NCBI GenBank assembly: GCA_947303535.1
Contig: CAMYYQ010000004.1
Location: 1 to 14,405, forward strand
Length of the DNA: 14,405 bases
Direction: 5' to 3'
DNA from: an uncultured Ruminococcus sp.
GTDB taxonomy: Bacteria > Bacillota_A > Clostridia > Oscillospirales > Ruminococcaceae
The notes under the pieces are model-generated. The model was given only the letters and a program-made list of their open reading frames with translations, was not told the DNA's origin and made no database searches. Made by a program: the position numbers and the translations under genes. Each line of letters begins with the position of its first letter. Positions within the stretch are counted from its first letter, which is position 1. Below, one piece after another: positions 4,114-12,257 of this stretch.

Positions 4114-4183
4114 CGGAAATTTTTATTTTTTTCTGTATCGAAAGTTATGCAGCGTAGTCTTATAGTTGAAGGCGGTGAGAAGT

Positions 4184-4672
4184 ATGAGTCAGGTCGAAGA
4201 GCTCTACAAAGACTATTTCCATGATGTATTCCTTTATATACGGTCATTGTCAGCTGACGAATCACTTGCTGAGGACATTACTCAGGAGACATTTTTCAAG
4301 GCTATAAAGTCTGTTGACAGCTTCCGCGGAGACTGCGACATAAGGGTATGGCTGTGTCAGATAGCGAAAAATCTGCTGTATACACACAACAAGAAGCAAA
4401 AACGTTACACAGGTGAGGAAGTGCCTGAGACAGTTCCGGATACTTCCGTGACTATGGAGGAGCTTCTTGAAAACAGCCAGCAGTCAATGGAGATACACCG
4501 AGTACTTCATACTCTTGTCGAACCTTATAAAGAGGTATTCACCCTGAGAGTGTTCGGAGAACTCAGCTTCCGACAAATAGGTGATATCTTTGGAAAGACT
4601 GAAAGCTGGGCGCGAGTGACATTCCACCGTGCAAAGCTGAAGATAATAGATGAACTGGAGGTACAGAAATGA
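4184..4672 (+). CDS. ECF-type RNA polymerase sigma factor (sigma-70 family)
   Basis: The 162-residue protein has only sigma regions 2 and 4, the layout of extracytoplasmic-function sigma factors. Region 2 (about 5-72) includes LYKDYFHDVFLYI, AEDITQETFFKAIKS and the -10 recognition segment DSFRGDCDIRVWLCQIAKN. Region 4 (about 103-156) includes EPYKEVFTLRVFGELSFRQI and the helix-turn-helix FGKTESWARVTFHRAK. I chose ATG 4184, preceded by GGTGAG; an in-frame TTG at 4166 has no better site. The stop overlaps the start of the next gene (ATGA), and that gene encodes a zinc-finger membrane anti-sigma factor, so this is a self-contained signalling pair. I saw no convincing ECF-type autoregulated promoter in 4114-4183. 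The regulon is unknown. Confidence 0.9.
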   Translation: MSQVEELYKDYFHDVFLYIRSLSADESLAEDITQETFFKAIKSVDSFRGDCDIRVWLCQIAKNLLYTHNKKQKRYTGEEVPETVPDTSVTMEELLENSQQSMEIHRVLHTLVEPYKEVFTLRVFGELSFRQIGDIFGKTESWARVTFHRAKLKIIDELEVQK

Positions 4673-5316
4673 AAAACTGCGATATGATAAAGGATTTGCT
4701 TCCGCTGTATGCTGACGATGTGTGCAGCGATGAGAGCAGAAAAGCAGTTGAGGAGCATATAAGAAGCTGCCCTGACTGCAAATCAGAGCTTGAAAAGCTC
4801 CGTAAGAACGTCACTGTAAGCCCTCAGAAGGACGCAGCAGTACTTAAACGTATAAAGCGACGTCTGCGCATAGAGAAGCTTGTAGTGAGCCTTATAAGCG
4901 TTCTGGCTATATGCGGAATTTTGCTTTACGGGCTTGTATATTGCATAAATGATTACAAGTCGATGGACATTGAGAAGTACAAGATACTTGAAAATGTAAG
5001 CGCCATCGAGCATGATAATGCTGTATGGCTCGATATAAGAGGTTTTGCAGCGTCATTTGATGTAGATGTTCCGACTTTAAGCGATACAAACGGCAAACAT
5101 CTTGGGATCGACGATGATTTTGACAGTGAAAAGAAAAACGGATACGGTATTACTCTCAAACAGCGCAGGATAGACGATTTTACGTTCGATCCCACAGGAA
5201 GTCTGAAAAGCTTTGAGATGAAGTTATTCGATCTTGACGAAAAGAAAGATATGATGAAGGTTTTCTACTACGATGATGTTAATGATAAAGAGTATATTTT
5301 GTGGGAGCGTGGTTAA
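4669..5316 (+). CDS. Membrane anti-sigma factor with zf-HC2 domain
   Basis: A 215-residue single-pass protein. Residues 1-45 form the anti-sigma zinc-binding domain, MKNCDMIKDLLPLYADDV followed by EEHIRSCPDCKSEL; H30, C34 and C37 give the HxxxCxxC motif and C4 is a likely fourth ligand. After a basic stretch (KRIKRRLRIEK) comes one transmembrane helix at about 71-93, leaving an extracytoplasmic domain at 97-215 that I do not recognise. The family holds its cognate sigma factor inactive at the membrane until a signal triggers release or proteolysis. It overlaps the sigma gene by four bases, so translation is coupled. The outer domain, rich in Asp and Lys, is the probable sensor. Confidence 0.88.
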   Translation: MKNCDMIKDLLPLYADDVCSDESRKAVEEHIRSCPDCKSELEKLRKNVTVSPQKDAAVLKRIKRRLRIEKLVVSLISVLAICGILLYGLVYCINDYKSMDIEKYKILENVSAIEHDNAVWLDIRGFAASFDVDVPTLSDTNGKHLGIDDDFDSEKKNGYGITLKQRRIDDFTFDPTGSLKSFEMKLFDLDEKKDMMKVFYYDDVNDKEYILWERG

Positions 5317-5642: not shown

Positions 5643-6212
5643 TTATTCATACTGTGCAAGAATTTTCAGAGCAGTTTCCAGTCGGGTCTGACGATTGTTC
5701 ATTGCCTGCTTTTCGATGTATTTATGAGCCTGTGGCTCTGTGAATTTCAGATATTTCATAAGAGTGGTCTTTGCGCGGTTAATGGTACGCATCTCCTCGA
5801 TACGGTTCATTATATCCGCGTTTTCCTTTTTAACACCTGCCATACGTACTCTTGCGGCGATAATAAGCCGTATTGTACGCTGAAGCTCTTCTCTTGTTAC
5901 GGGTCTTGACAGTACGTTTACGCCGCTGTCTGAGACTCTGTCGGCGATATCTTCCGAAACATCGCTGCCGCAAATGAGTATCATACCTGCGGAGGTGGAC
6001 TCTGCTATCATTTCTGCAAGCTCCTGACCGAATTCATCGGGCAGGGGCGTATTTATTATAACAAGCTCCGGCTCAGTCTCATTTTTTACCAGTCGTCGGG
6101 CTTCACTGCCACTGACAGCAACAGCTGTCCTTCCGCAGCCCTCTATGCGCAGGAGCTGCTCGCAAAGCTCGGAAATTTCGCTGTTTGAAGATACGATTAT
6201 CGCTCTGTCCAT
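5643..6212 (-). CDS. ANTAR-domain antiterminator with degenerate receiver (NitR-like)
   Basis: A 189-residue cytoplasmic regulator. Residues 1-118 resemble a response-regulator receiver, but the usual acidic pocket is missing: the first strand reads AIIVSSNSE, the phosphoacceptor position in LVIINTPLPD is N54 instead of Asp, and the conserved Lys of strand 5 is R103 (VLSRPV). A helical linker follows. Residues 135-187 are a good ANTAR RNA-binding domain (RTINRAKTTLMKYLKFTEPQ, AHKYIEKQAMNNRQTRLETA), a family that binds paired hairpins in nascent RNA and prevents termination. It starts 8 bases after the GS-like gene, with its GAGG overlapping that gene's stop, so the two form an operon. In clostridia, glnA-linked ANTAR proteins (NitR) control nitrogen genes; the same role here is inferred. 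Confidence 0.88.
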   Translation of the reverse strand: MDRAIIVSSNSEISELCEQLLRIEGCGRTAVAVSGSEARRLVKNETEPELVIINTPLPDEFGQELAEMIAESTSAGMILICGSDVSEDIADRVSDSGVNVLSRPVTREELQRTIRLIIAARVRMAGVKKENADIMNRIEEMRTINRAKTTLMKYLKFTEPQAHKYIEKQAMNNRQTRLETALKILAQYE

Positions 6213-6220
6213 AGTTTACC

Positions 6221-7513
6221 TCACACGAACTTGAAATATGACTCTTCTTCAAACTTGTCCTTATCTGATGCCTGTGAATAGTCATGTATCTGTTTGTCAA
6301 GCTGTGCGAATATATTACTGCGAATTTCCTGAGATAGTGTGTGTTTTACGAAATAACTGTTTTTAGCGATCTCAGCTGCTTCATCAAGCGATGACGGCAG
6401 CGGTTGCAGAAGCGAGTTGTCAGAGCCGTTGTGCATAGCACTTTCAAAGAGAGAGCAGTCCTGAGACTGTATTCCCTCGATACCGGCAGCAAGGATAAGC
6501 TTGAATGTGATATACGGGTTGCAGCAGGCATCTGCCGAGCGTATCTCTATACGCGGAGATATGCCCACAGGCTTAGGAACACGGATAAGCTGTGCGCAGT
6601 TCTCTGCTGACCAGTTGATATACTTTGGAGCATAGCCGATGCCAAAACGCTTGTAGGAGTTTGTCGTACTGTTGAGAAAAGCGGTTATCTCGCGCATTTT
6701 GCTCAGCACTCCTGATATGAAGCATTTACCCTCAAATGTCATGCCGTTCTGAGTGTCAAAGATGTTTTCTCCGCCTTTTTTCAGACTAATGGAGATGCTG
6801 AGTGCGCTTCCGTGCTCATTTGGGAGCGGCTTCGGCATAAATGAAGCGAAAAGACCGTTCTGAGCCGCTATGGATTTAACTACGGTCTTATAGTGTACCA
6901 TATTGTCGGCAGCGGTTATAGGCTCACTTTCGCGGAATTCGATCTCATTCTGTGCAGGACCGTGCTTATGGCAGGAGCTTTTCGGGCTCATGCCCATTTC
7001 TTCCAATGAGAGACAGATCTCACGTCTTGCGTTTTCGCACTTATCCAGCGGAGCAACATCAAGGTAGCCGCCCTTGTCGTGAGGTATCTTTGTGGGCTCA
7101 CCGCGCTCGTCCAGCTCAAAGAGGTAGAACTCGCATTTTGTCCCCATTTCGCAGGAATATCCGTCCAGTCTGAGCTGATTGATATAGTTGGTCAGCTCTG
7201 TACGCATATCGCCTACGTAGTCGCTTCCGTCCATATTTTTGAGAGCGCAGAAGAAGCGGACAACTCGTCCCGACTTAGGTCTCCACGGGAGAACGGAAAG
7301 TGTGGATATGTCGGGCACAAGAAGCAGGTCTGAACAGCCCTCGGCGATACATGAAGCATCGAAAGGTATGCCGTACTCGAATGCTCTCGGAAGTTCATTG
7401 GGCATGATAGCCACGTTTTTGAGATTGCCGAACATATCGCAGAAAGTAAGTCTTATAAATTTTACGTCGTTCTCTTCAACGAATTTCAGTATCTCTTTAG
7501 GAGAAAAGCTCAT
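6221..7513 (-). CDS. Glutamine synthetase type I-like protein, probably catalytically defective
   Basis: At 430 residues this has the length and both domains of GS type I. The beta-grasp N-terminal domain reads KFIRLTFCDMFGNLKNVAI, the Asp loop is FDASCIAEG, and the C-terminal domain includes SYKRFGIGYAPKYINWSAEN and SPRIEIRSADACCNPYITF. Compared with the family, the metal-ligand Glu of EPEFFLF is K126 (KCEFYLF), the Glu of HHEVAPGQNE is K183 (CHKHGPAQNE), the His of GSGMHC is S239 (GSALSI), the flap Glu of GYEAP is deleted, and the Arg of WSxxNR is C306. E128, E190 and E323 remain. Glutamine synthesis is therefore unlikely; a sensor or scaffold role is inferred from the ANTAR partner 8 bases downstream. 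The ribosome binding site is GGAGG at 7521-7525. Annotation pipelines would probably call it glnA. Confidence 0.85.
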   Translation of the reverse strand: MSFSPKEILKFVEENDVKFIRLTFCDMFGNLKNVAIMPNELPRAFEYGIPFDASCIAEGCSDLLLVPDISTLSVLPWRPKSGRVVRFFCALKNMDGSDYVGDMRTELTNYINQLRLDGYSCEMGTKCEFYLFELDERGEPTKIPHDKGGYLDVAPLDKCENARREICLSLEEMGMSPKSSCHKHGPAQNEIEFRESEPITAADNMVHYKTVVKSIAAQNGLFASFMPKPLPNEHGSALSISISLKKGGENIFDTQNGMTFEGKCFISGVLSKMREITAFLNSTTNSYKRFGIGYAPKYINWSAENCAQLIRVPKPVGISPRIEIRSADACCNPYITFKLILAAGIEGIQSQDCSLFESAMHNGSDNSLLQPLPSSLDEAAEIAKNSYFVKHTLSQEIRSNIFAQLDKQIHDYSQASDKDKFEEESYFKFV

Positions 7514-7666: not shown

Positions 7667-8251
7667 CTAATTTTTAAATCCCATTGCTTTTTTTATAATG
7701 AGCATTTTATCTTTACCTATAAGCTCGCTGAGCAGTACAAATGCAACTTCGGGAGCAGTCTGCGGACAATAGGAAGTAATGATGTTATCGGTCATTACGA
7801 CAGGTTCGTTGACTACTTCAACACCGTATTCCGCAAGCTGTTTTTGTCTATGACCGTTATTTAAATGATAAGTCGTGGCACGTTTGCCTGTTAATATTCC
7901 GCTATGAGCAAGAGCAAGCGCACCGACACAAACAGAAGCTATCATTTTGTTATTGGCATTGAATTGTCTTATTATATCCGATACTTTATCGGAAAAAGCT
8001 TCCTCATAGAAGCCGTATTCCTCAAAGCCGCCTGGAACTGCAAGGGCGTCATAATTTTTTACACGGACATCTTTCAGCAGGATATCGACTGTTACGGTAA
8101 CACCAAATGCGCTGGCAACAGTTTTGTTAACACCGCAGGTAATAACTTCAACATTATTATGAAAGCTGTCTTTTGCCCAGCCCATAACGTCGATAAACAC
8201 GCTTGCTTCCATTGTTTCAAAGCCCTTTGCAAGTAAAAGCAATACTTTCAT
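7667..8251 (-). CDS. DJ-1/PfpI family protein
   Basis: A 194-residue cytoplasmic protein of the DJ-1/ThiJ/PfpI superfamily, whose members include glyoxalase III/deglycase-like enzymes, chaperones and peptidases. It starts MKVLLLLAKGFETMEA, with the conserved Glu (E15) in place. The nucleophile elbow is MIASVCVGALALAHSG, with C108 as the reactive cysteine, and H129 follows in TTYHLNNG. The strand PVVMTDNIITSYCPQTA is typical of the family. I prefer ATG 8251 because the family begins with this motif. A GTG at 8260 would overlap the ychF stop (GTGA) and add three residues; the overlap shows that the gene is co-transcribed and probably coupled with ychF. The exact activity cannot be told from sequence. 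Confidence 0.88.
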   Translation of the reverse strand: MKVLLLLAKGFETMEASVFIDVMGWAKDSFHNNVEVITCGVNKTVASAFGVTVTVDILLKDVRVKNYDALAVPGGFEEYGFYEEAFSDKVSDIIRQFNANNKMIASVCVGALALAHSGILTGKRATTYHLNNGHRQKQLAEYGVEVVNEPVVMTDNIITSYCPQTAPEVAFVLLSELIGKDKMLIIKKAMGFKN

Positions 8252-8256
8252 TAAGA

Positions 8257-9351
8257 TCACACATTGAAGCGGAACAGAACTATATCTCCGTCCTGCATAA
8301 CGTATTCCTTACCCTCAAGGCGTACAAGTCCTTTTTCCTTAGCGGCAGCCATGCTTCCGCAAGCCATAAGGTCGTCGTAGGAGATGACCTCCGCACGGAT
8401 AAAGCCTTTCTCAAAGTCGGTATGTATCTTACCTGCTGCCTGTGGAGCCTTAGTACCCTTTGTGATAGTCCATGCGCGGACTTCCTGCTTGCCTGCTGTG
8501 AGGTATGAGATAAGTCCGAGGAGTGAATAGCCCTCCTTGATGATACGGTTAAGACCTGATACTTCGAGACCAAGCTCGCTGAGGAACATAGCCTTGTCCT
8601 CGTCGCCCATATCCGATATCTCAGCCTCTATCTGCGCACAGATAGGGAGTACAGCAGAGTGCTCCTCAGCTGCAAGTGCGCATACAGCCTTGTAATTCTC
8701 ATTTGTTTCGATATTGTTTGTGAAGTCCTCTTCGCTGAGGTTAGCAGCATAGATAACAGGCTTTGCGGAGAGGAGTGGAGTTGACTTTATAAGTTCTCTT
8801 TCCTCGTCAGTGAAATCAAAGCCTCTTGCGGACTTGCCGTTTTCAAAGTGAGCCTTTAATCTTTCAAGGAACTCAGCCTCTGCAAGGTACTTCTTGTCGC
8901 CCTTTGCAGCTTTTTTAGCACGGTCGATACGTCTGTCCACCATTTCGATATCTGAGAAAATAAGCTCCAGATTGATAGTTTCGATGTCACGTAGAGGGTT
9001 TATGCTTCCGTCAACGTGAATGATATTGGGGTCCTCAAAGCATCTTACAACGTGAACGATAGCGTCAACTTCACGGATATCAGCAAGGAACTTGTTTCCG
9101 AGACCTTCGCCCTTTGAAGCTCCCTTTACAAGACCTGCGATATCAACGAATTCGAGAGTTGCAGGAGTGAACTTATCAGGCTCATACATCTCAGCAAGCT
9201 TGTCAAGTCTCTCATCGGGAACAGAAACGATACCAACGTTCTTCTCAATAGTGCAGAACGGATAGTTTGCTGATTCAGCACCTGCGTTCGTAAGTGCGTT
9301 GAAAAGTGTGCTTTTGCCTACATTAGGCAGACCAACCATACCAAGTTTCAT
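8257..9351 (-). CDS. ychF: Redox-regulated ATPase YchF (OLA1 family)
   Basis: A 364-residue universally conserved P-loop protein of the Obg-related group that hydrolyses ATP rather than GTP and associates with ribosomes. It shows G1 GLPNVGKST (7-15) followed by FNALTNAGAESANYPFCTIE, the G3 segment FVDIAGLVKGASKGEGLGNK, and an altered G4 (YAANLSEED, NxxE rather than NKxD), which explains ATP preference. A coiled-coil insertion follows G3 and a TGS domain occupies about 280-362 (AWTITKGTKAPQAAGKIHTD; DGDIVLFRFNV). The ribosome binding site is weak (AAAGGTAAG). A GC-rich hairpin at 9381-9403 separates it from the EAL gene upstream, and the DJ-1 gene overlaps its 3' end. Confidence 0.97.
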   Translation of the reverse strand: MKLGMVGLPNVGKSTLFNALTNAGAESANYPFCTIEKNVGIVSVPDERLDKLAEMYEPDKFTPATLEFVDIAGLVKGASKGEGLGNKFLADIREVDAIVHVVRCFEDPNIIHVDGSINPLRDIETINLELIFSDIEMVDRRIDRAKKAAKGDKKYLAEAEFLERLKAHFENGKSARGFDFTDEERELIKSTPLLSAKPVIYAANLSEEDFTNNIETNENYKAVCALAAEEHSAVLPICAQIEAEISDMGDEDKAMFLSELGLEVSGLNRIIKEGYSLLGLISYLTAGKQEVRAWTITKGTKAPQAAGKIHTDFEKGFIRAEVISYDDLMACGSMAAAKEKGLVRLEGKEYVMQDGDIVLFRFNV

Positions 9352-9412: not shown

Positions 9413-12151
9413 TTAATTGTTAGCGTAAGTTGTGCGCTTGTTGTTTACAAGCGAGCTTACATTTGAATTCTGTATCTGAACATCGCCGCTTTCGGTACCT
9501 ATATCCTTAGGATTTCCTGCGTTAACGACCATTGATACCTGTGAATCTATAATAGCAACATTTCCTGTACCGAGAGCATCACCGATACCTGTTACTTCAT
9601 CGCCCTCTGAGTCGATAGTGATATCGGCATTTCTTATCTTAGTATTGACGCTGCCCTTGATAGCACCGATACATGAGTTCTTGCCTGAGCGCATCTTCAT
9701 ATTTATCTTGCCCTGCTTGATGTAGATACTGCCCTCGCCGTCCTCAAGAACGCCGATTCCCACAGCCTGCGCACCGGTACAGGACATATTGATATTTGCA
9801 GAAGAGCTGATCGTTGCAATGCCCTTGCAGCTTCCTATACCTGCTATCTTGATACCCGACATATTCATATCGAGCTCGCAGTTCTCGCCGATATCGATAT
9901 TTGCATCACCGTTGAAGCTTCCGATACCAAGACCGTTATGGGAGTACATGAACAGTCTGACTTTACCCGAAACGAGCTTTATATCGGAGTCGTCATCATT
10001 ATATCCGCCGCCGATGCAAAGGGATTCAACGCTGTTAGAGACAATTTCAAGAGTACCGCCGAAGTCGATAGTGATATCGCCGTAGCCGTGATCGTAATCG
10101 TTTCCAATACCGATACCCTCGGAAGCATAGCAGTCGATAGAAAGATTACCCTTACCGTTTAGCTCAAACTGTGAACCCATAGGTACATAGATACCCGAGT
10201 AGCTCAGCTTGTTGTTCTTGACAACATTGAGTACAAGTCTTGCGTACTCGCCCACAGTGATAGTAGGCTTGCTGTTGCCGCTTATCATATTGACGTTTTT
10301 AAGTGTAAGCTCGCAGCTATGATTATCCATTACGGATATATTCATCTTCACAGGCTTGTCGGGATCACCAACGATAGTGAGCTTGCTCTGGTAAACGTGG
10401 ATATCGGTGTATTTTTCAAGAGCCAGTTTAAGGAGATCGACTTCCGTATCATTCTGTGCGGCATAGATCTTCTTAACGCCGTCAGGACGGCTTTCGAGAT
10501 TGGTCTTGATTATCTCGTCCTTGATATCAGCGGAGATGCTGTTGAGGAAGAGAGGCTTTGGTTTTGAAGTATAATAGCCCTGGATAAGATCAACACCAAG
10601 ACGTATAACTGTTTTGAGCTCTTGTACCGTCTCAACGCCCTCAGCCAGTGATGTCAGCTGGTTTTCGTGGCAGAACTCGATAACGGAAGTAACGAGCTGC
10701 TGTTTTTTGAGGTCGTTATGGATATCACTTATGAGCGAACGGTCTATCTTGATGTAATCAGGGGAGTAATGAAGCAGATTTGACGAGTTGGAATAGCCTG
10801 TGCCATAGTCGTCTATAGCAAGCTTTGTATGTGCAAATCCGCAGCGTTTTTTCAGTGTCTCGATGCCCTTTGCAGTAGCCGCAGACTCCTCGACTATTTC
10901 GATAACGGTCTTTTCAAGGAGCTCGCCGTAGGTAAGGTAAAGCTCATTGAAGTCCTCATCGGTGAGGAGATGATTGGGAAGGCAGTTGATGAACAGCTTG
11001 CGCTTTTCAAATATCTGCTGGTTATCGCTGAGAAGCTTCATGGTATTGAAGAAGGTGAGCTTTTCGATAGCATAGAGATTATTCTGAGCTTCACCTATTT
11101 TCAGTATCTGCTTGGGAGCCATTTTTATATCGCCCACAGTACGCATAAGAGCTTCATAGGCTACTATCTCGCCTGTCTGAGTTTCAACGATAGGCTGGAG
11201 ATAGTAGGTAAGGAGATTTTCCTGAACGATACGCGAGAACGTCTGAGCATTGCGGTAAGAGTCCTTTTCGCGTATGTAGTTTTCCTCCGAGAACCAGTTT
11301 ATAACAGAGCGTTTATCTGTACGTGCCTCGAAGAGCGCAAACTCGGAAAAATTCACCAGCATATTGAAGTCAGATGCTTCCTCGGGATAAGATGCACAGC
11401 CGATAGAAAGGCTTATATGGCTCTTATCGGAAATATCTATTATCTCGCCGAAGTCATCTGTGAGTATGCAGTTCTGAACCGCCTCGTCTATACTGTTGAG
11501 GATATTGTATATGCTCATCTTATCAAATTCGCGGAAGAATACGCATATCTCATAGTTGGATTTTGAGCCGATTATGAGAGTATCGCTGGCAAAGCTTTTC
11601 AGAGCTTCCGCAACAGAAGTGATACAGCTGTTGGTATTGTCAACAGTAAGGTACGAACCGAGCTTGTCTATGCCGTTTATGTAGATAGTAGCAAGGCAGG
11701 CGTGTTGTACATCGGGAAGTATCTTTTTTATCTTCTGTGAAAATGACGGATAGGAGGGGAGACGTGTTATAGGATCGTACTCTACAAAAGCCTGTCGGTC
11801 GTTGAATTCCGATATCTGACGGGTGAAGTCCTGAACGAAGCCAAGCCACTCGTCACTGCTTTCGTATATGTTCATTTTTATGTAGCGTGTTACATTTCCG
11901 TCTGTGTATTTATAGATATGTTTCTGTCCTTCAACGGGATTTTTGGAGATCATTTCAAGGAGATTGAAGAATTCAAACTCGTTGATCTTTTCACTCGGGC
12001 AGCCAAGCATATGACAGGCAGCCGTATCAAGGTAAGCAGCTTTCTCTTTTGCAATATACGTGAACGCACCTATATTGCCGACAAACTGCTGGAATACTTT
12101 CCAGTCACGGCTCAGCGCGGGAGGAGTTTGGGTAAAATCGAAAATACTCAT
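9413..12151 (-). CDS. EAL phosphodiesterase with degenerate GGDEF and C-terminal beta-solenoid repeats
   Basis: The 912-residue protein starts at ATG 12151 (GGAG at 12157-12160, spacing 5); an upstream ATG at 12202 has no ribosome binding site and lies in the leader hairpin. Residues 1-110 look PAS-like. Residues 124-288 are a GGDEF-type fold starting YDPITRLPSYPSF, but the GGDEF signature is replaced by SKSNYEI, so it is not a cyclase. Residues 306-533 form an EAL domain with every catalytic element: YLQPIVETQTGEIVAYEALMR, FINCLPNHL, VIEIVEES, AIDDYGTGYS, YIKIDRSLI, LAEGVET and IQGYY. It should hydrolyse c-di-GMP to pGpG. Residues 558-908 contain about eight Ile-Gly repeats with a 27-31-residue period, probably a beta-solenoid. 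No signal peptide or membrane segment is visible. It has its own promoter and structured leader. Confidence 0.9.
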   Translation of the reverse strand: MSIFDFTQTPPALSRDWKVFQQFVGNIGAFTYIAKEKAAYLDTAACHMLGCPSEKINEFEFFNLLEMISKNPVEGQKHIYKYTDGNVTRYIKMNIYESSDEWLGFVQDFTRQISEFNDRQAFVEYDPITRLPSYPSFSQKIKKILPDVQHACLATIYINGIDKLGSYLTVDNTNSCITSVAEALKSFASDTLIIGSKSNYEICVFFREFDKMSIYNILNSIDEAVQNCILTDDFGEIIDISDKSHISLSIGCASYPEEASDFNMLVNFSEFALFEARTDKRSVINWFSEENYIREKDSYRNAQTFSRIVQENLLTYYLQPIVETQTGEIVAYEALMRTVGDIKMAPKQILKIGEAQNNLYAIEKLTFFNTMKLLSDNQQIFEKRKLFINCLPNHLLTDEDFNELYLTYGELLEKTVIEIVEESAATAKGIETLKKRCGFAHTKLAIDDYGTGYSNSSNLLHYSPDYIKIDRSLISDIHNDLKKQQLVTSVIEFCHENQLTSLAEGVETVQELKTVIRLGVDLIQGYYTSKPKPLFLNSISADIKDEIIKTNLESRPDGVKKIYAAQNDTEVDLLKLALEKYTDIHVYQSKLTIVGDPDKPVKMNISVMDNHSCELTLKNVNMISGNSKPTITVGEYARLVLNVVKNNKLSYSGIYVPMGSQFELNGKGNLSIDCYASEGIGIGNDYDHGYGDITIDFGGTLEIVSNSVESLCIGGGYNDDDSDIKLVSGKVRLFMYSHNGLGIGSFNGDANIDIGENCELDMNMSGIKIAGIGSCKGIATISSSANINMSCTGAQAVGIGVLEDGEGSIYIKQGKINMKMRSGKNSCIGAIKGSVNTKIRNADITIDSEGDEVTGIGDALGTGNVAIIDSQVSMVVNAGNPKDIGTESGDVQIQNSNVSSLVNNKRTTYANN

Positions 12152-12257
12152 AGTTACTCCGTATACCGCATGACGGGCGCAGAATAGCCTATTGCGCCTC
12201 ATGTTGGCACCTGCATTTTACGGTCAGCAGGTGACCGTGATAACGTACGATTTATAC
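12152..12257 (-). ncRNA. Structured leader of the EAL gene with competing helices (riboswitch candidate)
   Basis: Reading the minus strand from the predicted start near 12257, ACGGTCA (12238-12232) can pair with TGACCGT (12226-12220) around loop CCTGC. That loop, extended as CACCTGC (12233-12227), can instead pair with GCAGGTG (12214-12208). The helices overlap, so they either alternate or form an H-type pseudoknot with partial stems. Next is a long hairpin at 12203-12169: CATGA plus GGCGCA pairs with TGCGCC plus TCATG with a 2-base bulge. The GGAG ribosome binding site follows at 12160-12157. I do not recognise the c-di-GMP-I or -II riboswitch consensus. Confidence 0.5.

What the first reader, a model, noticed from the sequence alone, without database searches (positions are those of the whole stretch)
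6221..7513. Glutamine synthetase homologue that has lost most of its active site
Seen: in a 430-residue GS-I-like protein, family motifs read KCEFYLF, CHKHGPAQNE, GSALSI, YKRFGIGYAPKY and WSAENC. Known: the standard motifs are EPEFFLF, HHEVAPGQNE, GSGMHC, YKRLVPGYEAP and WSxxNR, carrying metal ligands E129, E212 and H269, flap E327 and Arg339 (Salmonella numbering). Three of six metal ligands are replaced (Lys, Lys, Ser), the flap Glu is deleted by a one-residue gap, and Arg339 is Cys, while the fold motifs and length are kept. Inference: this is a GS pseudoenzyme kept for another job, perhaps sensing glutamine, nucleotide or another GS, and would be mis-annotated as glnA.
Basis: partly seen in the sequence, partly recalled or inferred. 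Interest (0 to 1): 0.8.

Follow-up and report, generated by a model that had tools for sequence, protein, structure and literature searches.

The report
Inactive glutamine synthetase as nitrogen sensor
A rumen bacterium keeps a copy of the ammonia-fixing enzyme glutamine synthetase whose catalytic site looks destroyed, next to a gene for an RNA-binding switch protein, and related genomes suggest that the pair works as a nitrogen gauge that turns ammonia-uptake and ammonia-fixing genes on and off.

Summary
The 430-aa ORF at 6221-7513(-) is a full-length type I GS fold lacking E129 (K), E212 (K), H269 (S) and flap E327 (Y). Corrections: the flap Glu is substituted, not deleted (relatives with an intact site share the gap); Cys339 is not a family trait (Arg in 40/80). 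The losses are old and selected: K129 in 79/80 and K212 in 80/80 relatives, dN/dS about 0.055. An ANTAR gene follows in 80/80 loci; its receiver lacks the acid pair and usually the phospho-Asp, like AmiR-type pseudo-receivers. In 14 host genomes all 23 type I GS-like genes are degenerate, and all 14 have GSIII. In five genomes where this is the only such pair, an ANTAR-type hairpin precedes GSIII in 5/5, with an overlapping terminator (strict rule 1, relaxed rule 4). Elsewhere such leaders precede amt, glutamate synthase and asnA. Order-wide, GSIII leaders carry hairpin plus terminator in 15/40 from genomes with ANTAR, 0/20 without. Best reading: a dedicated non-catalytic GS-fold sensor controlling an ANTAR antiterminator of nitrogen assimilation. 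Binding, ligand and polarity are inferred. Metal-ligand loss has more than one origin in the ANTAR-linked GS clade.

The parts
6221..7513 (-). GS-fold pseudoenzyme (family A), 430 aa
   Evidence: ORF; Pfam Gln-synt_N and Gln-synt_C; TIGR00653 302.9 bits, below the equivalog cut-off 429.15; AF2 model pLDDT 84.3, pTM 0.89; the 50 PDB matches shown are all GS chains, TM by query length 0.86-0.90
7136..7138 (-). codon of K126 = metal ligand E129
   Evidence: alignment to B. subtilis and M. mazei GS; K 79/80, R 1/80
6965..6967 (-). codon of K183 = metal ligand E212
   Evidence: K 80/80
6797..6799 (-). codon of S239 = metal ligand H269
   Evidence: S66 C6 T4 N2 A2
6632..6634 (-). codon of Y294 = flap E327
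   Evidence: alignment; Y71 G5 F4
6596..6598 (-). codon of C306 = Arg339 (variable in the family)
   Evidence: R40 C30 L6 N2 H1 K1
5643..6212 (-). partner gene, pseudo-receiver plus ANTAR, 189 aa, starts 8 bp after the GS-like stop codon
   Evidence: ANTAR ORF downstream of the GS-like gene in 80/80 loci
5871..6200 (-). receiver domain (residues 5-114), no acid pair
   Evidence: Pfam Response_reg; alignment
6051..6053 (-). codon of N54 at the phospho-acceptor Asp position
   Evidence: family A N54 D13 C7 S2 V2 G1 (six commonest letters), family B N 9/9
5661..5807 (-). ANTAR RNA-binding domain (residues 136-184)
   Evidence: Pfam ANTAR E=1.2e-12

Best explanation
The gene encodes a dedicated, non-catalytic glutamine-synthetase-fold sensor that works with the ANTAR protein encoded 8 bp downstream. 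Proposed mechanism: the amino-acid half of the old active site (E128, E190, G235, R289, R325 and neighbours) still binds a nitrogen-status ligand, most likely glutamine, while two lysines take the place of lost metal-binding carboxylates so that binding needs no catalytic metal pair. The ligand state of the pseudo-GS decides whether it holds the pseudo-receiver of the ANTAR protein. When nitrogen is short the ANTAR protein is free, binds hexaloop hairpins (C[AANGRN]G) in the leaders of GSIII, amt/PII, glutamate synthase and asnA transcripts, blocks the overlapping terminator and turns the genes on. Shown by sequence: loss of the site, selection, pairing, pseudo-receiver, GSIII in hosts, hairpin/terminator leaders in related genomes. 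Inferred: inactivity itself, GS-ANTAR binding, ligand, direction of control, and that the window's own pair has these targets.
For: Ligand loss in 80/80 with substrate-side residues conserved: E131, E220, G265, R321, R344, E357, R359 each 80/80. Purifying selection: dN/dS median 0.055 for the GS-like gene (152 pairs among 19 sequences), 0.069 for ANTAR (108 pairs). Pairing: 80/80 loci; in 14 genomes 23 of 23 ANTAR genes lie beside a GSI-like gene; order-wide 82 of 108 ANTAR matches directly downstream of one. Pseudo-receiver. All 23 GSI-like genes of 14 host genomes degenerate (14 family A, 9 family B), GSIII-type matches in 14/14. ANTAR-type hairpin before GSIII in 5/5 genomes whose only GS-I/ANTAR pair is family A; overlapping terminator by the strict rule in 1, by a relaxed rule in 4. 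Hairpin before amt and before a split-GOGAT operon that contains GS-A and ANTAR-A (L028); before amt near pair A (L074, L076, L077); before gltB-gltD-GS_B-ANTAR_B and the divergent amt-GSIII (L226). GSIII leaders: hairpin plus terminator 15/40 from ANTAR+ vs 0/20 from ANTAR- genomes, Fisher P=0.001; shuffled leaders 0.1. Hairpin model, 30 fetched hits each: ANTAR+ genomes 12 non-coding, 4 with strict terminator; ANTAR- genomes 4 and 0.
Against: No assay, no complex structure, no expression data. Arg62 and the flap Glu, which bind feedback glutamine in B. subtilis GS (recalled), are lost in 80/80, so glutamine sensing would need another binding mode. Only 5 of 80 family A loci have a nitrogen gene within the fetched stretch, and the window itself shows no hairpin with terminator. 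In two-pair R. flavefaciens genomes targets cannot be assigned to pair A or B, and several of their GSIII copies have no hairpin directly upstream. The phospho-Asp is present in 13 family A partners. A clear second hairpin was found only in L076/L077 and L195. The hairpin model alone gives as many rows in ANTAR- genomes (62) as in ANTAR+ genomes (55), and 18 of 30 fetched ANTAR+ hits are coding. One ANTAR- genome (L343) has a similar hairpin before an asnA-like start. 26 of 108 ANTAR matches are not beside a GSI-like gene. 25 of 40 GSIII leaders from ANTAR+ genomes lack the motif at the main setting.
Confidence: 0.7

Rival explanations
1. The protein is still an enzyme: a ligase for another amine or another acid, or a weak GS, and the ANTAR protein merely regulates its own operon.
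For: The fold and several substrate residues are kept. Other GS-fold ligases with altered specificity exist (NCBIfam GGputSyn match, 185.1 bits against a cut-off of 650). Many ANTAR-linked relatives keep all six metal ligands.
Against: E129, E212 and H269 are replaced in 80/80; the first two are turned into Lys (one Arg), so the n2 metal site should be gone, and the flap Glu is missing in 80/80. Known specificity variants keep the metal ligands (recalled).
Confidence: 0.1
2. The pseudo-GS regulates GSIII by protein contact (for example forming mixed oligomers), and the ANTAR protein is a co-transcribed neighbour with a different input.
For: No catalytically intact type I GS was found in the 14 host genomes, all of which have GSIII-type matches.
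Against: GSIII and the GS-like proteins differ in length (about 700 vs 430 aa). The constant neighbour is ANTAR, in 80/80 loci. ANTAR has a pseudo-receiver of the kind that in AmiR is controlled by a partner protein (PMC3369931 passage).
Confidence: 0.1
3. AmiC-like polarity: the ligand-free pseudo-GS holds the ANTAR protein and a starvation ligand (2-oxoglutarate, glutamate or ADP) frees it, so it is not a glutamine sensor. This is a variant of the best explanation.
For: The feedback-glutamine residues Arg62 and flap Glu are absent (their role recalled). AmiC binding of its ligand allows AmiR to act (passage).
Against: GS of B. subtilis type binds its regulator GlnR in the glutamine-inhibited state (passage). 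The retained residues are those recalled to hold glutamate/glutamine.
Confidence: 0.3
4. A decaying duplicate or assembly artefact.
For: None found beyond the substitutions themselves.
Against: 97% identical copies in R. flavefaciens YAD2003 and ATCC 19208; dN/dS 0.055; nearly invariant replacement residues.
Confidence: 0.01

Closest known systems
AmiC-AmiR (Pseudomonas aeruginosa) and NasS-NasT
   Same: A ligand-binding partner protein controls an ANTAR antiterminator; AmiR-class ANTARs have a pseudo-receiver (AmiC-AmiR in PMC3369931, passages read; NasS-NasT from the search listing and abstract start of PMC3795266).
   Different: The sensor is a GS-fold protein, not a periplasmic-binding-protein fold (recalled for AmiC); the predicted targets are GSIII, amt, GOGAT and asnA, not amidase or nitrate genes.
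Feedback-inhibited GS with GlnR/TnrA (B. subtilis and relatives)
   Same: A type I GS reports nitrogen status to a regulator by protein contact (PMC9249791, passages read).
   Different: There GS is an active enzyme and the regulator binds DNA; here the GS has lost catalytic residues and the partner is an RNA-binding antiterminator.
NitR of Clostridium saccharobutylicum
   Same: An ANTAR protein capable of antitermination that induces GS/GOGAT genes upon nitrogen limitation (PMC6316151, passage read; also mentioned in PMC4676874, passage read).
   Different: No inactive GS sensor is mentioned in those passages; the primary papers were not read.
ANTAR target RNAs of nitrogen genes (Ramesh et al. 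2012)
   Same: Hexaloop hairpins with A1 and G4 overlapping terminators; hits upstream of ammonium transporter, PII, glutamate and glutamine synthesis genes (PMC3369931, passages read).
   Different: The passages read do not link these RNAs to a GS-like partner and do not mention Ruminococcus (0 occurrences).
Lengsin (LGSN, PDB 2j9i)
   Same: A GS-fold protein without GS activity (recalled).
   Different: A vertebrate lens protein, distant in sequence (E=3.2e-5), with no RNA-switch partner known to me.

Membership tests
Type I glutamine synthetase (GlnA, catalytic) | GSI fold and full length | tested here: met
Type I glutamine synthetase (GlnA, catalytic) | Equivalog model TIGR00653 above cut-off | tested here: not met
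   302.9 vs 429.15 bits
Type I glutamine synthetase (GlnA, catalytic) | Six metal ligands and flap Glu | tested here: not met
   three of six ligands and the flap Glu replaced
Type I glutamine synthetase (GlnA, catalytic) | Glutamine synthesis activity | not testable with these tools
   needs an assay
AmiC-AmiR-type ligand-controlled ANTAR pair | ANTAR protein with pseudo-receiver | tested here: met
   no acid pair, N at the phospho site in the window and most relatives; D in 13 family A rows
AmiC-AmiR-type ligand-controlled ANTAR pair | Partner gene beside the ANTAR gene on the same strand | tested here: met
   80/80 loci
AmiC-AmiR-type ligand-controlled ANTAR pair | Partner of the AmiC (periplasmic-binding) fold | tested here: not met
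   partner has the GSI fold
AmiC-AmiR-type ligand-controlled ANTAR pair | Ligand-dependent complex | not testable with these tools
   needs protein work
ANTAR target RNA | Hexaloop hairpin with A1, G4 overlapping an intrinsic terminator | tested here: met
   in related genomes: GSIII, amt, GOGAT and asnA leaders; none in the window
ANTAR target RNA | Two such hairpins in tandem | tested here: inconclusive
   clear in L076/L077 and L195; one recognised hairpin per terminator in the other leaders looked at
Feedback-inhibited GS (TnrA/GlnR type) | Residues Arg62 and flap Glu that bind feedback glutamine (recalled) | tested here: not met
   Arg62 position gapped in 80/80, flap Glu absent in 80/80

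The most novel reading that the evidence does not exclude
A new class of bacterial nitrogen sensor: glutamine synthetase-fold proteins that have more than once lost catalysis and serve as ligand-responsive partners of pseudo-receiver ANTAR antiterminators, controlling the true enzyme (GSIII), ammonium uptake and glutamate synthase through RNA. The enzyme's own fold has become the gauge for its distantly related replacement.
Probability: 0.6. Interest if true: 0.88.

Novelty: new variant of a known kind. Interest (0 to 1): 0.75.

Why it matters
If true, it shows a metabolic enzyme turned into a pure sensor more than once, joins two known ideas (GS as nitrogen reporter, partner-controlled ANTAR antitermination) in one circuit, and supplies a testable nitrogen-control system for rumen and gut Ruminococcus. 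It also warns that these genes, named glutamine synthetase where a public source gives a name in the listing, should not be counted as GS in metabolic models.

Tried and rejected
Own genome: none held, so relatives were used. Rfam on the window: nothing at gathering score. Strict dual-hairpin scans found few sites and none in the window (with the window included; on fetched loci). A genome-wide 16-nt hairpin model is not specific by itself: 55 rows in 6 ANTAR+ genomes against 62 rows in 6 ANTAR- genomes, of which 30 and 30 were fetched; only position, terminator overlap and downstream genes separate the sets. An exact-pattern search gave 8 matches in 14 genomes against 3 for the reversed control, with none in eight of the 14. 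The scan exceeds mononucleotide shuffles (18 vs 1-5 in L222-L241 plus window; 36 vs 8 and 6 in L001-L080; 32 vs 2-4 in L134-L213), but many of the L001-L080 hits look coding.

First pass of the GSIII-leader test had some loci in the wrong orientation (13/43 vs 0/27); one search corrects it. One search tried three motif settings; all are in the full report, and the loosest, hairpin alone, is not significant. It dropped 3 of 43 leaders (L292, L294, L295; the first two have hairpin plus terminator) and 7 of 27 for lack of a recognisable start; genome G107 is in the set twice; the leaders come from the listed rows of a capped table, not a random draw; kinship is not corrected for. Several GSIII copies of two-pair genomes have no such hairpin directly upstream.

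Grouping all 33 metal-ligand-losing rows as one clade is rejected (p-AU 7e-6), but grouping families A and B is not (p-AU 0.66, likelihood slightly higher), so A and B may share a loss. The tree is a quick search with 26 open forks. The gdhA start-codon hairpin (L329, L338, L340) may be chance of coding plus ribosome-site sequence and is not counted as support. No coordinates of the AF2 model were at hand, so the pocket was not inspected.

Full report
1. The observation. The ORF at 6221-7513 on the minus strand (430 aa) matches both GS domains, scores below the cut-off of the catalytic GlnA model (302.9 vs 429.15 bits) and aligns over most of its length with B. subtilis- and M. mazei-type GS. 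Three of the six metal ligands are replaced: E129>K126, E212>K183, H269>S239; E131, E220 and E357 are kept. The one-residue gap before the flap Glu is not a loss of that Glu: relatives with an intact site carry the same gap and still have the Glu, and in the window the position holds Tyr. Cys at 339 is not a family feature: 80 relatives have R40 C30 L6 N2 H1 K1. Salmonella numbering and residue roles are recalled.

2. Old and selected. A scan of species genomes returned 80 loci (60-97% identity; the best 80 of 117 relatives), from records titled Ruminococcus, Oscillospiraceae, Clostridia, Clostridiales or Bacillota. In these 80: no Glu at 129 (K79 R1), K at 212 in 80, no His at 269 (S66 C6 T4 N2 A2), no flap Glu (Y71 G5 F4). 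Kept in 80/80: D50, E131, E220, G265, R321, R344, E357, R359. In 19 close sequences (window and 18 loci) median dN/dS is 0.055 for the GS-like gene (152 pairs) and 0.069 for the neighbouring ANTAR gene (108 pairs). An AlphaFold2 model from 46 family sequences has pLDDT 84.3 and pTM 0.89; the 50 PDB matches shown are all GS chains. So by sequence it is a maintained pseudoenzyme; lack of activity itself is inferred.

3. The partner. The next gene, 5643-6212, starts 8 bp after the GS-like stop and encodes a receiver plus ANTAR domain. An ANTAR ORF follows the GS-like gene in 80/80 loci. The receiver has no acid pair in the window and Asn at the phospho-acceptor site; across family A the six commonest letters there are N54 D13 C7 S2 V2 G1, in family B N 9/9. 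Such pseudo-receivers are described as acting through a partner protein, as AmiR with AmiC (PMC3369931, passages read).

4. Genome census. Fourteen genomes that hold family A were searched (14 chosen from the hosts of the 80 loci). They have 23 type I GS-like genes: 14 of family A and 9 of a second family B (E129>S 9/9, flap Glu absent, R339>G8 N1, D50>A5 T4), and 23 ANTAR genes, each beside one of them. All 14 have further PF00120 matches in frames of about 700 aa, 1 to 3 per genome, which I take as GSIII; GSIII_N confirms this in G001 and L226 of G002. One GSIII (L105, G012) aligns with 3o6x and keeps the catalytic motifs by my inspection of the alignment. None of the 23 type I genes has an intact set of metal ligands.

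5. Wider clade. In 147 genomes of the order, 94 have ANTAR and 142 a PF00120 match. Of 108 ANTAR matches (one gene counted twice) 82 lie directly downstream of a GSI-like gene; of 95 GSI-like genes (23 matches of about 480 aa left out) 82 have ANTAR. I fetched 80 regions (78 of the 95 and 2 of the 23); 67 of 80 have ANTAR downstream. A quick tree of 101 rows (2 references, window, 14 of 80 family A, 4 of 9 family B, 80 fetched; site columns removed) splits canonical GlnA (24 fetched rows, none with metal-ligand loss) from a 73-row, mostly ANTAR-linked clade (SH-aLRT 99): 12 rows intact at the scored sites, 28 with all six ligands but the flap Glu changed (24 of them to Lys), 33 with metal ligands lost. 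The fewest changes for metal-ligand loss are 9, for flap loss 6. One origin of all 33 is rejected (p-AU 7e-6); A plus B as one group is not (p-AU 0.66), so these two may share a loss. L185, the nearest relative of family A in the tree, has both lysines but keeps H269 and the flap Glu, and has no ANTAR beside it; it looks like a stage of the loss.

6. RNA targets. Published ANTAR sites are hairpins with a six-base loop, A first and G fourth, overlapping a terminator; eut sites share AGCAANGRRGCUY (PMC3369931, passages). In GSIII loci of family A hosts the hairpin GAAAC[AATGGC]GTTTC lies upstream of GSIII in 6 of 7 loci examined (L104-L109; not L110). This includes the five genomes with one ANTAR gene, whose only GS-I/ANTAR pair is family A (G007, G010, G012, G013, G014). 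The pattern AAACAATGGNGTTT occurs 8 times in the 14 genomes, in 6 of them, against 3 for the reversed control. In L028 (G007) the hairpin-terminator precedes both amt (identified by BLAST) and a divergent operon of split glutamate synthase, GS-A and ANTAR-A. In L074 it precedes amt 1.6 kb from pair A; in L076/L077 a clear double hairpin precedes amt right after ANTAR-A. In two-pair genomes modules precede the gltB-gltD-GS_B-ANTAR_B-purF-like operon and the divergent amt/PII-GSIII operon (L226 and relatives). Only 5 of 80 family A loci show a nitrogen gene in the fetched stretch, and the window has no such hairpin.

7. Tests of the RNA link. GSIII leaders (450 nt) from genomes with and without ANTAR, hairpin with overlapping terminator: AANGRN stem>=5, 15/40 vs 0/20 (Fisher 0.001); AANGRN stem>=4, 21/40 vs 0/20 (2.4e-5); ANNGNN stem>=5, 16/40 vs 1/20 (0.005). 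Hairpin alone: 18/40 vs 1/20 (0.0013), 26/40 vs 1/20 (6e-6), 23/40 vs 6/20 (0.058). Shuffled ANTAR+ leaders give 0.1-0.3 with terminator. The settings came from the published motif after first examples had been seen, and kinship is not corrected. A 16-nt covariance model on six ANTAR+ genomes gave 55 rows, 30 fetched: 18 coding, 12 not. The 12 precede GSIII (5), asnA, a hydantoinase-type gene, gltB, gdhA (3, at the start codon, perhaps chance) and one unidentified stretch; 4 have a terminator by the strict rule and 4 more by a relaxed one. Six ANTAR- genomes gave 62 rows, 30 fetched: 26 coding, 4 not, none with a terminator by either rule, although one (L343) has such a hairpin before an asnA-like start. 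Some GSIII leaders were also seeds of the model.

8. Mechanism. Best fit: a GS-fold protein that no longer catalyses, reads a nitrogen signal in the kept amino-acid pocket and controls the ANTAR protein by contact; free ANTAR antiterminates GSIII, amt, glutamate synthase and asnA. Glutamine is the favoured ligand because GS of B. subtilis type reports nitrogen excess to GlnR in its glutamine-inhibited state (PMC9249791, passages read). Against this, the residues recalled as binding feedback glutamine (Arg62, flap Glu) are gone, so another ligand or the opposite polarity (AmiC-like) is a serious rival. Binding, ligand and polarity are inferred.

9. Novelty. Pseudo-receiver ANTAR partners, ANTAR control of nitrogen genes, an ANTAR regulator (NitR) of GS/GOGAT in Clostridium saccharobutylicum (PMC6316151, passage read), GS as reporter, and an inactive GS-fold protein (lengsin, recalled) are known. 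I saw no description of a catalytically dead GS paired with ANTAR in the listings of searches, which cover open-licence PubMed Central only; listings and abstract starts were read, and passages of five papers. I rate it a new variant of a known kind.

Noticed in passing
L226:2562-3839 (-); L095-L103: A second degenerate GS-ANTAR pair (family B) is carried by 9 of the 14 host genomes searched; in L226 it sits behind glutamate synthase genes (gltB-gltD-GS_B-ANTAR_B-purF-like).
   Followed up: partly
L178-L191, L194-L209, L212, L213 (most of these): A large group of about 400-aa GS-like proteins, most next to ANTAR, keeps all six metal ligands but has Lys in place of the flap Glu: possibly another route to a non-synthesising sensor.
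   Followed up: partly
L329, L338, L340; also L057 (-) 9755: A hairpin tttaac[AATGGC]gttaaa overlaps the start codon of glutamate dehydrogenase in several genomes; it could be translational ANTAR control or chance.
   Followed up: partly
genomes G126, G069, G097; L292, L294: Some genomes have ANTAR and one GSIII-type match but no type I GS-like gene; G126 and G069 still show AAAGGC hairpins with terminator before GSIII, so another input to ANTAR is likely there.
   Followed up: no
window 9413-12202 (-): 929-aa protein with matches to c-di-GMP phosphodiesterase (EAL) families in about residues 112-551, below their cut-offs, and a repetitive-looking C-terminal part of unknown role.
   Followed up: no
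window 7667-8260 (-): DJ-1/PfpI family gene upstream of the GS-like gene; found by BLAST in 1 of 80 related loci, so not part of the conserved unit.
   Followed up: partly
window 4166-5316 (+): Two neighbouring ORFs that look like an ECF sigma factor followed by a membrane protein with a zinc-finger-like start (judged by eye only).
   Followed up: no
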